Of a DNA stretch of 64,000 nt, positions 12,969-17,395 are shown one piece after another. Under the pieces are notes generated by a model. It was given only the letters and a program-made list of their open reading frames with translations, searched no databases and was not told where the DNA came from. Within the stretch, counting starts at the first letter, position 1, and each line of letters begins with the position of its first letter. The DNA comes from Heliocidaris erythrogramma (Eukaryota; Echinodermata; Echinoidea; Camarodonta; Echinometridae). The position numbers were made by a program, and so were the translations under genes. Location of the stretch: NCBI GenBank assembly GCA_025617745.1, contig CM046863.1:10962935-11026934 (forward strand), read 5' to 3'.

Positions 12969-14929
12969 AAAGACGAACTATGATTAGTCAACATGATAAG
13001 ACCTGATATTTTGTTTTTAGCTTTGTTTTGGATTCTATTCTTTCATTTCATAGTGACAAAGCTTTTCGACCTGCACTCATCGGGTCACAACGCAGGAGTG
13101 AGAAAATACAAGAAAATACGAAAGTCAAAGAAGGGTGTGTACAGCGACCCGGATATGATCCAAGTACGCTAAAATAATCGAAGAGCCTGTACAAACTCCT
13201 TTTGTCGGAATAATAGCGGATCTCTCGACTGAATGAACAACCTCTGTAAGATGCTGAGAGCTGCGTGCTCGGGCAACACTAGTGAACTGAGTAGGGTTAT
13301 ACGCCTTGGAACAAGCCGGACTATTCTTCAAGTGCTGACCAATAGCAGAGTCGCAGTGATTGCGGCACTGCACATTAACCACGCCAGCAGCGCTTTTGCA
13401 ATTGCAAGAGACAGAAAATCAGAGAAGAAAAGGAGACCAAGCAGAAGGAACAAAAAAATAAATAAAAAAATAAATAAATGAGTGTGTTGCATAGTACACA
13501 AAATAAGATCAAAGCAAAGGGACCACCACATAAAAATAAACAAATTACGTAAAGTCCATACCGTATGGTTAAAATCAACATTGTCATTGATCTGTTTCTG
13601 TTTTCAATGAACATATATGCCCCATACCATATTGCACTTAACCAAGAAAAACACCCCGTAGTTGTACATGATATTTCACTGATGATGGGTAACCATCAGA
13701 CAGAAAGAATTGTTGACAGACCCCCCCCCCCCCCCCCCCTCCCTTGCCACATCTTGCCATGGTCATAGTACTTCCGATTTTTTTTGCGATCGTGACAACA
13801 GGAGCCATGACCCAATGTAGTGTGAGCGCGGGAGTTACGACTACATGCATTGCCCATAGTAGCGAGCATGCGTGCACTGTATTGCACTGCGTATAATATC
13901 GATGAGATGGTGAACTAGAATCGTGAAATCTGTCTAGATTTACTTCAAAATACCATCCTTTTGTTGCATGTGGCTGTTCCAATTGTTCAGGGAAGGGAAC
14001 AAATATGAATAAGAACTTGATAATAGAAGACTATTTGTAATAAGTATAATAAAAAGAGTTCGAGGCACGAATCATGGTTTGTGTATATTAAAACATTTAA
14101 TTCATCTGATGCTAAACTGAAGGTTAGAAAGTGATATTTGGATTAGTGTAGAACATAAATTGTTATTCAACATAGAAGAAACCACACACTTAGTCTGAGG
14201 ATGTTTTGCACAACACTGTACACTTTTGAAAGGAGAAATCCTTTACTTAATACACAGAAGATGGGTTTTTTACAAGATGTAAAACTTTCTGAACATTTAA
14301 AATCATTTTTAACTCCTATAATTAGCCTACAATTGTCTTTTTGTTTTGTTTAACGCCCCATCAGCACCTTATTGGGCTATATCGAGGCATAGTACGTATA
14401 TTTGATTATGAGAGTGATACTTTGTGCTTAAATATTGTGGAGTTACATTGCAATAATCCGTTCGTTACATACCCTACAACTACTAGATAGTGCCATTGTA
14501 CATGTCGATACTGTGCATATGTACCGTAGAGATATACAGTCAGAGAGAGAAAATAGATCGTACAACCACAACAAGACTTGCCAGATCACCCACCATAGAC
14601 ATATTTAATTATACAGTCGATTTGATGGACGAGATAGATTCCATACAACTAGTGCTAGTATTACTTAAATCAGTATTATATGACTGCTTCCAATCTATTT
14701 CAACTCCAAGTATGTACAATATTTAGATCTTGTGACCATAAAGGCATTAGGTTTACTAGTATTATCCACTACTCACTTAGACACTAGATAGACCTTCATG
14801 GAAACCCCAAATCTGAAGACCAAAATTTTTGCTGATAAGGAGAACAAACTTTTATTGCATTACTAGAGCATGGACCTACAAGTACTATGCCCATGCTAAG
14901 TTAGTAAGAGTAATTGAGTTGATAAATCT
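12969..14929. other. No gene recognised
   Basis: This stretch holds a C18 tract (13722-13739), A-rich AAATAAATAAAA runs near 13453-13478 and short open frames without recognisable domains. I see no element termini. Confidence 0.4.
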
Positions 14930-15230
14930 CCGTCTTTGATGAGGGTTGGCTCATCTTTATCTGTGATGAGGGGTGGTTTATCTCCATCTCTGATGAGGGT
15001 TGGCACATCTTCACTTCGGATGGGGGATGTCTCATCTTCCTCTATTTGGAGAGTTGGCTCATTTTCAACTCTGAAGGGGGTGGTTCATTTTCTCTGATGA
15101 AGGATGGCTCATCTTCATCTGTGATGAGAGGTGGTTCATCTCTGATGAGGGTTTGCTCATTTTCAACTCTGAAGGGGGTGGCTCATCTTCTCTGACGAGG
15201 GATGGCTCATCTGCATCTCTGAAGGATGTT
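14930..15230. repeat. Degenerate 33-bp minisatellite
   Basis: About nine diverged copies of a unit containing GATGAGGGTTGGCTCATC and TTCATCTCT. The 33-bp period keeps a minus-strand frame, so the repeats may once have been translated as the tail of the RAG1-N-like protein. Several copies have stops. Confidence 0.75.
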
Positions 15231-15851
15231 ACTGTGTTATTATGAAGTGGTGATATTGTGGCAGTACAAGAATTTATGTTAACATTATTAATATGAATTA
15301 ATTTATGGCAATTCTTGCACCGTATTTCTATTTCATATTTGTACCTGTCGACATTGGCAAAAAGGAGTGCCTCGGGGGATTTGGCGAGAGGGAGGGTCAT
15401 AGGACCCTGAACTGGGGGGGGGGGGGGGGTTCCTGTGGTTCCAGGGTGCTGAAGGGGAATGTTATTGGTTCTTCGGGGAACAGGAATTCCTCTGTTAGAC
15501 TATCTCTACGCCTCCTTTTCTTTGGCTTGCTTCCTGGCATAGCCGTCCTTTTTACCCAGGTGCAAATGCATCATTATGTTTCACCCATCGAACCCGTTGG
15601 CAAACATCTAATTTGTAATTGGGACGAGCCTTCAAACATGCGCAGCATGGCGGGCATATCGATTTAGGATGCATTTCTGGATCATCATTTGTTGTATTAA
15701 TGGCATATTTCATTAGTTTGCTCGCAAAAGACTTGATAGGATACCGTTTACGATGTCGTGGTATCTTCTCACCACACAACCGACATAGGACTAATAGCCA
15801 TTGGGAATGGAGAACTTCCCTACCATTAGTATTACAATTACGTGCACTCAT
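14930..15851 (-). pseudogene. RAG1 N-terminal-like zinc protein fragment with degenerate C-terminal repeats
   Basis: Minus strand from ATG 15851: about 30 residues lead to VLCRLCGEKIP, then RYPIKSF, a spacer, and NDDPEMHPKSICPPCCACL, followed by VRWVKHNDAF. The order CxxC, acidic HP.xxC.xxC and W..H matches the zinc dimerisation part of the RAG1 N-terminal region and related N-RAG proteins of invertebrates (from memory, not searched). The frame stops near 15550. A second frame then runs from KPKKRRRR through a proline run to IRCKNCHKL. Downstream, 14930-15230 codes for or decays into an 11-residue repeat (SSEMKMSHP-like). No transposase or RAG1 catalytic core is present. Probably a pseudogene or a partial gene with a missed exon junction. 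Confidence 0.5.
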
Positions 15852-16440
15852 GATACATAAAAAGGGTTTAATTCAAAAGACGGGCGTCGAATGAAAAATG
15901 TCTGTTCTGACCAAAGGAATCCTATACCTCTAGCAAAATCTTTCCCCCTGTATGGTGAATAGCCCTAGAAATCAAATATCTTGTCCCTTTGTGAAAAAAA
16001 TTGTTTTCATGACATATGGAGTATTAATGGTTAGTATTATGACAATGGAGATGTTAATGACCTTCCCTCAAGAGTGATGATCGGGAAATGAGCTTAGATG
16101 TGCGATTGAATGATTTAAAATTATTATTTTGAAGGTTTGGGAACAGAAACAGACGCATCCTGAACTATAACATGCTTAACCCATTTCAACTACTTAATTG
16201 GAATTTTAAACATTTTTTGAAGTATTGGAAAGTAAAAATACAAAAAAATATTGTTTGCGCTCTCATGTGACCTTATTAAGCAGAATCGGCAAATAATCAG
16301 AGGCCTCTCGCGCCAGCACCCACACCTACTGGTCGTGTATTCAACGAACATACGTGAGTGTGAAAGCAAACAAACCGTTCCTCAAGAGCCCGCTAACTTG
16401 GAGCGGTCCAGCAGGGAGTGTGAAAGGCCTCACGTCCAAT

Positions 16441-16677
16441 GTTTAGTATGCAGCATTTGACAAACTATGGGGCCTCTGTTTTCCACGGTTCGCCTTCATT
16501 TTCTGATTGATTTTATTGAACCTCTAATATGCTTTATCAACCATGCATGTTGTTACAAGTTTACTTCTATACAATAAATTCATTGTAGATGCACAAAATA
16601 AAAGGAAAGCATTCAACTCATGTGTATATGGTGTAAACGTTGGCGTCTCGCCGGGGGGCCAAGAAAGGGTAACTGTT
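16441..16677 (+). repeat. Direct repeat, copy 1
   Basis: About 237 bp, starting near GCAGCATTTGACAAACTATG and ending at GGCGTCTCGCCGGGGGGCCA, recur at 17161-17395 in the same orientation. I estimate 80-85 percent identity by eye. No coding potential was recognised. Confidence 0.85.
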
Positions 16678-17160
16678 CTACTTGTATAGAAAAAGAGAAA
16701 GACCTGTCTACGCCAATGATCATCTGAAAAACAAATCAGGGGCGAGTTATACAGTTACACCCTCTCCCTGATGGAAACTTTTTCCCGTTTTTATATTTTT
16801 GTAATATACACCCATACCTCTTAATTCTGCCAACATTTCTTCCATAAGCCCTGATGGGGAACAAAATTACCCCAGTTTTTAGGAGTCGAGTGACAACCCA
16901 TCCCGACTTAAAATTAAGTGCGTCAGTTTTGTGTTTTGGTTATGTTTGGCCAACTACTTCTTTCTTACAAAGTTTGGCGCATATGTAAGATGGGTTGAAA
17001 TCGACCCGACTTACAATGAATGGGCCGGGGGGCTCTGGGGCCAAACCCGGCATCTTAGTTCAGGTTGACAAGCTTTTGTGATTAACATGGATGGAACAGT
17101 AACTTTATGGGGTCAAATCTCATACGGGGTGACTATTTTGGGACAGCTCCTGGCGTATAA

Positions 17161-17395
17161 TGTTCAGTATCCAGCATTTGACAAACTATGGGCCCCTCAA
17201 TTTTCCACGGTTCGCTTCATTTTCAGATTGATCCTCTATTGGACCTCTAATATGCTTTGTCAACCAGGCATGTTGCTTACAAATTTATTTCCATACAATA
17301 GATTCATTGTACATTCTCGAAATAGAAAGCATTCAGCCCATGTATCTATGGTTTAAGCACTGGCGTCTCGCGGGGGGCCAAGAACGGGTGACTGT
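17161..17395 (+). repeat. Direct repeat, copy 2
   Basis: Second copy of the block at 16441-16677, starting 720 bp downstream. Sequence between the copies is not itself duplicated. Confidence 0.85.

What the first reader, a model, noticed from the sequence alone, without database searches (positions are those of the whole stretch)
14930..15851. RAG1 N-terminal-like zinc domain outside any RAG1 gene
CRLCG, then HPKSICPPC with preceding acidic residues, then W..H follow the order of the RAG1 N-terminal zinc dimerisation region. Related stand-alone N-RAG proteins and transposons have been reported in molluscs and other invertebrates. Here the domain is followed by a basic stretch, a CKNC pair and 11-residue repeats, with no catalytic core. 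It bears on how RAG1 acquired its N-terminal half.
Basis: partly seen in the sequence, partly recalled or inferred. Interest (0 to 1): 0.7.

Follow-up and report, generated by a model that had tools for sequence, protein, structure and literature searches.

The report
Decayed Chapaev transposon, RAG1-like zinc domain
This is a broken copy of a jumping DNA element in what looks like a sea urchin genome; the element carries the zinc-binding front part of the immune protein RAG1, which is already known from this class of transposon, so it is a new member of a known kind rather than a new gene.

Summary
The RAG1-N-terminal-like zinc domain is real: a profile made from other RAG1-like zinc domains of the genome finds the window ORF (15552-15851, minus) at E 2.3e-10, while the best of 2000 shuffles scores 9.3 bits. 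It is not a gene of its own. It lies in a 3'-truncated, frameshifted copy (14458-16356, minus) of a multicopy short DNA transposon. Complete relatives begin CACGTATGT and end ACATACGTG; 12 of 12 read at both ends have a perfect 4-bp target duplication. One relative keeps a 235-codon ORF with the zinc modules in RAG1 order but no RING. The genome also holds a ~9.9-kb element with the same nine terminal bases and a 4-bp TSD, encoding a RAG1-like N-terminus with RING (E 1.6e-12 to RAG1) and exons with a D-D-CxxC-HxxxxH-E pattern. CAC...GTG ends, 3-4 bp TSD, 'Chapa' domain and RING are described for Chapaev transposons (PMC4079192, PMC4411706, passages). The window copy is best read as a decayed non-autonomous Chapaev moved in trans; six examined loci of a sister subfamily share stops, so spread with a dead ORF. 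Known kind, new member; modest interest.

The parts
14458..16356 (-). Copy of a short non-autonomous Chapaev-type DNA transposon; 5' end present, 3' end missing (about 520 bp shorter than relative L003, by arithmetic)
   Evidence: Alignments of L002, L003 and L007 begin at 16356 = CACGTATGT (L005 ran 3 bases and L020 10 bases further, taken as chance); last base shared with L003 is 14458; no 3' end of the family found in the window
16325..16356 (-). 5' terminal sequence CACGTATGTTCGTTGAATACACGACCAGTAGG
   Evidence: Pattern occurs 151 times in the genome with up to 2 mismatches, 0 for the reversed control
15552..15851 (-). Fragment of RAG1-N-terminal-like (Chapa) zinc-domain ORF, ends early by frameshift and stop
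   Evidence: relative L003 has the ORF open for 235 codons
15771..15785 (-). CRLCG zinc motif
15645..15671 (-). HPKSICPPC zinc motif
   Evidence: coordinates counted by hand
15500..15541 (-). Basic stretch PGSKPKKRRRRD in a shifted frame; compare PGRPKKRRRRD of L003
   Evidence: sequence; L003 ORF
15266..15319 (-). CKNCHKLIHINNVNINSC finger; in L003 it aligns with the post-RING finger of the full N-RAG protein (IHCKHCTADIHYTHSNQHSC)
14926..15222 (-). Tandem repeat, period 27 bp, 11.5 copies, 66% matches, encoding acidic DEPP-type repeats
15414..15429 (.). Run of 16 G on the + strand (proline codons on the minus strand) within the former ORF

Best explanation
The feature is a decayed copy of a non-autonomous Chapaev-superfamily (CMC group) DNA transposon. 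The lineage once encoded a RAG1-like N-terminal 'Chapa' zinc domain, probably as part of a Chapa-RING-DDE transposase. Internal loss left a 2.5-2.7 kb element with both termini and a short Chapa-only ORF without RING or catalytic core. Shown: matching CACGTATGT/ACATACGTG ends, exact 4-bp TSDs, copies in many places, a deletion derivative without most of the ORF and dead-ORF copies that also spread, and Chapa-RING ORFs followed by transposase-like exons in larger elements of the same genome. Inferred: that these exons belong to a Chapaev transposase, that such a transposase recognises the shared CACGTATGT ends and moves the short elements in trans, that the window copy then lost its 3' end and its frame, and that its zinc ORF now does nothing.
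For: Homology of the domain: a profile of zinc domains from L030, L031, L033 and the two L034 copies hits the window ORF at E 2.3e-10 and L003 at 1.7e-12. The larger relative L031 matches RAG1 in the PDB (6oem) residues 155-374, from HP..C..C through the RING and the finger after it, at E 1.6e-12; the ten best PDB matches are all RAG1. Of 6 places found with PF12560, L029-L033 score 28.4-31.3 bits against a cut-off of 23.3; L034 passes only with its neighbours. Mobility: 151 five-prime and 158 three-prime termini, 0 reversed controls; 46 of the 100 listed 5' ends have a listed 3' end in opposite orientation within 12 kb, one 3' end serving twice; 12 of 12 pairs read at both ends have identical 4-bp flanks (10 pairs fetched, two from L002/L037 and L005/L039). 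Trans-mobilisation: L062 (2,051 bp, TSD TGGG) is the 2,674-bp element without bases 561-1182, most of the zinc ORF; L014, L015, L016, L018, L019 and L020 share in-frame stops at the same places with small variations, so were copied after the ORF died, and a pair with that subfamily's 5' terminus has a TSD (C10:18021784, TGAC). Class: the L032/L038/L061 element has the same first 9 bp at both ends and TSD ATCA, a PF06918 exon (E 1.2e-18), and D, D, CxxC, HxxxxH, E residues kept in loci L063/L064 whose four matching exons are 27-48% identical. Chapaev hallmarks (CAC/GTG ends, 3-4 bp TSD) from passages of PMC4079192; Chapa and Chapa-RING in Chapaev from passages of PMC4411706.
Against: No autonomous copy with the window family's own subterminal sequence was found; none of the 9 transposase-exon places falls inside one of the 46 pairs. 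The large element's 5' end shares 14 of the first 15 bases with the family's 3' end but 10 of 15 with its 5' end. The window copy has no 3' TIR and no TSD. No Chapaev reference transposase was available to compare, so the class rests on termini, TSD, domain order and a motif pattern picked out by eye; exons 1, 2 and one more stretch of L036 had no match in L063/L064 at E 1e-3; Pfam gives only DUF1280 above its cut-off, and no RAG1 core match. PDB search with transposase exon 6 found nothing. The intact short ORF alone does not reach RAG1 in Pfam above cut-off or in the PDB. The second half of the short ORF shows frame-0 dN/dS below 0.66 in all 15 pairs of the six close copies, which fits a protein that mattered for a time.
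Confidence: 0.9

Rival explanations
1. The Chapa-only ORF of the short elements was functional: a zinc-finger protein without catalytic core that binds transposon ends and represses or helps transposition (like truncated P-element repressors, recalled), kept by selection for a time.
For: L003 keeps a 235-codon open frame with zinc modules and a basic stretch. Between L003 and the diverged copy L006, dN/dS in the zinc part (codons 1-112) is 0.43. In the rest of the ORF (codons 113-235) frame-0 dN/dS is 0.26-0.65 in all 15 pairs of the six close copies (L002, L003, L004, L005, L007, window), against 0.31-2.19 and 0.66-1.74 in the two off-frame readings.
Against: In the zinc part the same six copies range from 0.27 to 3.0 (one pair undefined), and for L003-L006 the off-frame controls are 1.03 and 0.61; pairs are not independent, changes are few, the second part holds repeats, and no correction for transition bias was made. 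Only L003 of the nine copies compared is open throughout. A derivative without most of the ORF and copies with a dead ORF spread.
Confidence: 0.14
2. A host N-RAG gene (domesticated, stand-alone) that happens to lie in repeats.
For: Open frame of 99 codons from an ATG in the window with well-formed zinc motifs.
Against: Frameshift and stop remove the rest of the protein; six other loci are 81-92% identical in protein (L002, L003, L004, L005, L007, L008/L011); transposon 5' end at 16356.
Confidence: 0.03
3. A Transib/RAG-like (RAGL) transposon remnant, that is, a RAG1L N-terminus whose core was lost.
For: The same genome has RAG1-core-like loci (8 matches at 5 places).
Against: TSDs are 4 bp, none 5, in 12 of 12; the linked catalytic exons do not match PF12940; the five core-like loci compared did not align to the window (E 1e-6, 60 bp or more).
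Confidence: 0.03
4. Unrelated zinc finger (zf-AD or similar) with a chance likeness to RAG1.
For: Weak Pfam match to zf-AD, E 0.47; L033 too has a zf-AD match, E 0.001, below its cut-off; C..C...C..C patterns are common.
Against: Profile E 2.3e-10 with shuffled control; same order of modules as L031, which matches RAG1 along 200 residues.
Confidence: 0.01

Closest known systems
Chapaev DNA transposons with Chapa domain, some with RING (Kapitonov and Jurka 2007, seen only as cited; Kapitonov and Koonin 2015, PMC4411706, passages)
   Same: CAC...GTG termini, 4-bp TSD, Chapa-type zinc domain, zinc domain followed by RING in the large elements
   Different: The window family lacks RING and transposase, and the window copy lacks its 3' end
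N-RAG-TP of Aplysia californica (Panchin and Moroz 2008; paper not held, known from passages of PMC8355894 and PMC2996935)
   Same: A transposon said to consist of RAG1 N-terminal-like sequence without the core
   Different: Host is a probable sea urchin; sequence relation not testable here
Vertebrate RAG1 N-terminal region (zinc motifs, RING/ZDD)
   Same: Order of zinc modules; larger relative L031 matches RAG1 155-374 (6oem) at E 1.6e-12
   Different: Window family has no RING, no nonamer-binding or catalytic core
Transib / ProtoRAG / TransibSU RAG-like transposons (PMC7204232, PMC4411706, passages)
   Same: Same wider CMC-Transib clade (PMC12730594, passages); N-terminal zinc motifs in RAG1L
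   Different: 5-bp TSD (PMC8355894, passage) and RAG1-type core in those; 4-bp TSD and no such core here

Membership tests
Chapaev superfamily | Termini 5'-CAC...GTG-3' | tested here: met
   Complete relatives CACGTATGT...ACATACGTG; in the window copy only the 5' end is present
Chapaev superfamily | 3-4 bp target site duplication | tested here: met
   Relatives: 12 of 12 with exact 4 bp, plus the large element with ATCA. Not available for the window copy (3' end lost)
Chapaev superfamily | Transposase with D-D-C(2)C-H(3-4)H-E pattern | tested here: inconclusive
   Absent from the window copy. Pattern present by eye and kept between L036 and L063/L064; no Chapaev reference sequence to align
Chapaev superfamily | Chapa zinc domain, in two subgroups followed by RING (PMC4411706) | tested here: inconclusive
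   RAG1-like N-terminal zinc domain in the window and with RING in L031, L033, as described; but the published Chapa alignment was not available to compare
RAG1 N-terminal region | Profile match above curated cut-off (PF12560) | tested here: not met
   Window fragment 13.6 bits and L003 10.8 bits against 23.3; relatives L031 and L033 pass
RAGL / Transib transposon | 5-bp TSD | tested here: not met
   4-bp in 12 of 12 relatives
RAGL / Transib transposon | RAG1-type catalytic core in the element | tested here: not met
   Core-like loci do not align to the window; exons of the large element do not hit PF12940
N-RAG-TP (Aplysia) | Sequence and termini of the published element | not testable with these tools
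   Paper not held

The most novel reading that the evidence does not exclude
In echinoids, Chapaev elements shed both RING and catalytic core but for a time kept a coding Chapa protein that acted in trans on the shared CACGTATGT ends, as a transposition regulator. That would give the RAG1 N-terminus an ancestral role separate from cutting DNA, and such core-less coding elements would be ready donors of that half to RAG1-type cores in the same genome.
Probability: 0.1. Interest if true: 0.6.

Novelty: new member of a known kind. Interest (0 to 1): 0.3.

Why it matters
It moves a puzzling 'RAG1 piece without RAG1' into a named class: a RAG1-like N-terminal half exists as the Chapa(-RING) part of Chapaev transposons. 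This genome holds RAG1-core-like loci, full zinc-RING-transposase elements, and short zinc-only and zinc-less derivatives. That is useful material for asking how the two halves of RAG1 met, but the window copy is a fossil and settles nothing alone.

Tried and rejected
AlphaFold2 on the 7-row alignment A1 gave mean pLDDT 35.5 and was not used for a fold search; the alignment was shallow and its L029 row is out of frame in its first part because that copy has a frame break. PDB searches with the window fragment (best RAG1, E 0.23), with L003 alone (no RAG1) and with one transposase exon (nothing) were not significant. Mollusc origin: rejected in favour of an echinoderm, because the mitochondrial contig has cox1, tRNA-Arg, then ORFs that look by eye like nad4L and cox2, and reads in the echinoderm code; gene order as an echinoderm mark and the sea-urchin look of cox1 are recalled. 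Splicing across 15520-15560: not needed (L003 is open through it). Tallies used 100 of 151 five-prime ends and 100 of 158 three-prime ends (only these were listed) and 136 of 150 zinc-domain hits (14 rows of the C20 clusters left out by oversight; no listed 5' end lies there). Literature searches; no listed title or abstract start shows a Chapa-only Chapaev family of echinoids, but Repbase reports are not held and most papers were not opened.

Full report
What was claimed. The pattern is there. The ORF 15851-15552 reads CRLCG, then NDDPEMHPKSICPPC, then W..H. The basic stretch, the CKNC finger and the acidic repeats follow, but in other frames. The repeat period is 27 bp, i.e. 9 residues, not 11.

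Is it related to RAG1? Directly the likeness is weak: PF12560 (RAG1_imp_bd) E 0.051, below its cut-off but the best of four matches; RAG1 in the PDB E 0.23. The intact short ORF L003 reaches E 0.37 with PF12560 and no RAG1 in the PDB. Larger relatives in the same genome settle it. A search with PF12560 found 6 places; L029-L033 score 28.4-31.3 bits against a cut-off of 23.3, and L034 (17.8 bits) passes only with its neighbours. L031 (337-codon frame; 312 residues searched) matches RAG1 (6oem) residues 155-374, through the RING and the finger after it, at E 1.6e-12; the CRLCG part aligns too but scores nothing by itself; the ten best PDB matches are all RAG1. A profile made from L030, L031, L033 and the two L034 copies, without the window family, finds the window ORF at E 2.3e-10 (38.1 bits) and L003 at 1.7e-12 (45.0 bits); the best of 2000 shuffles of L003 scores 9.3 bits, and the best of the other 1171 window ORFs of 30 residues or more 7.3 bits.

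What carries it? The window ORF has many relatives in the genome: 150 scored matches at E up to 1 out of 200 candidates, a lower bound, its own place included. DNA likeness runs beyond the ORF and, in L002, L003 and L007, stops at one base, 16356, where the sequence begins CACGTATGTTCGTTGAATACACGACCAGTAGG. This terminus occurs 151 times with up to 2 mismatches; the partner terminus CACGTATGTTTGCACCGCTCACTTNGTGGG occurs 158 times; reversed controls give 0. Among the 100 listed of each, 46 five-prime ends have a partner in opposite orientation within 12 kb (one partner serves twice); 14 of the 46 are 2,026-2,156 bp long and 12 are 2,454-3,066 bp. A zinc-domain hit lies within 2.5 kb inside 24 of 100 five-prime ends and outside 0 of 100. 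I read both flanks of 12 pairs: nine of the 46 and the L003 pair, and L002/L037 and L005/L039, which are also among the 46. All 12 have the same 4 bases on both sides.

The copies. L003 has the ORF open for 235 codons: CRLCG, HPKSMCPPC, CPIC, GRPKKRRRRD, then CKNC...HSC, acidic repeats, and no RING. L031 has a RING-type stretch between the basic stretch and the last finger (zf-C3HC4 E 5e-4, just below that family's cut-off; RAG1 match over the RING). The window copy has lost the CPIC pair by a small deletion and runs into a stop; it ends at 14458, about 520 bp short of the 3' end of L003 (arithmetic). L062, a complete 2,051-bp element, is the 2,674-bp element without its bases 561-1182, most of the zinc ORF. 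L014, L015, L016, L018, L019 and L020 share stops in the zinc region, such as KSM**SCC (exactly so in L014, L015, L016, L019; one of the two stops in L018 and L020), so this subfamily spread with a dead ORF.

Selection. Among six close copies dN/dS in the zinc part runs from 0.27 to 3.0 with few changes; between L003 and L006 it is 0.43, with off-frame controls 1.03 and 0.61. In the second half of the ORF it is 0.26-0.65 in all 15 pairs of the six close copies, lower than most off-frame readings (0.31-2.19 and 0.66-1.74). The pairs are not independent and the stretch is repetitive, so I call this suggestive only; it speaks for the rival that the short protein once mattered.

What moves it? Behind the N-RAG ORF in L031 and L032 lies a set of exon-like open stretches (L036, L038). 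The L032 element starts CACGTATGTCTGCACG and ends ACATACGTG with ATCA on both sides, 9,941 bp by arithmetic; the L031 copy lacks about the last 32 bases. One stretch matches DUF1280, PF06918, at E 1.2e-18. In loci L063 and L064 (a second family; four of seven stretches match, 27-48% identical) VGGD.GG, FEG.D, CC.YC, HLLE.H and EQGGE are kept: picked out by eye, this is the order D, D, CxxC, HxxxxH, E described for the CMC-Transib clade (PMC12730594, passages). Of 9 places with the DUF1280 exon, 5 have a zinc-domain hit 2.3-3.6 kb upstream; the other 4 have none within 10 kb. None of the 9 lies inside a short-family pair. The large element's 5' end shares 14 of the first 15 bases with the 3' end of the window family and 10 of 15 with its 5' end.

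Placing it. Chapaev transposons have CAC/GTG ends and 3-4 bp TSDs (PMC4079192, passages). Kapitonov and Koonin (PMC4411706, passages) describe a 'Chapa' zinc finger shared by RAG1 relatives and Chapaev, followed by RING in two Chapaev subgroups. N-RAG-TP of Aplysia is described as a transposon made of RAG1-N-terminal-like sequence (PMC8355894, passages; the original was not held). So the window holds a decayed member of a non-autonomous, RING-less family best placed in Chapaev. The transposase class is inferred from these features, as no Chapaev protein was at hand to align.

The host. The genome is 1.06 Gb in 26 contigs. The mitochondrial contig has cox1, tRNA-Arg and then ORFs that look like nad4L and cox2, and reads in the echinoderm code. 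I take it for a sea urchin (gene order and cox1 likeness recalled). It also has RAG1-core-like loci: 8 matches at 5 places.

Verdict. Observation mostly right, interpretation half right. Known kind, new member; useful context for RAG1 origins but a fossil in itself.

Noticed in passing
G000 contig C20, about 13.575-13.592 Mb and 13.660-13.681 Mb: 21 zinc-domain hits about 1-3 kb apart, all on the minus strand, in two clusters: perhaps a tandem array of this transposon family.
   Followed up: no
L021-L028 (C1, C7, C18, C21, C5): RAG1-core-like (PF12940) loci over the cut-off, 5 of 8 matches with stops inside; C18 locus L023/L024 has long open stretches and one with HHPACAVCSRF, like the third RAG1 zinc motif.
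   Followed up: partly
L034 1432-1581 and about 2616-2770: Two diverged copies of a zinc exon of the same type (CRICW...HP..C..CR) about 1.2 kb apart, each followed by stops as if at an exon end; another N-RAG gene or family.
   Followed up: partly
L033 1369-2379 and L063: Open 337-codon zinc-RING frame of a second family with transposase-like stretches about 2.3 kb downstream.
   Followed up: partly
window 16438-16676 and 17159-17395: Direct repeat of about 240 bp, 84% alike, just outside the transposon 5' end.
   Followed up: no
window 1059 (+): CACGTATGTTGGCTTACGCACTC: an isolated match to the 9-bp terminus, no further likeness to the family found.
   Followed up: partly
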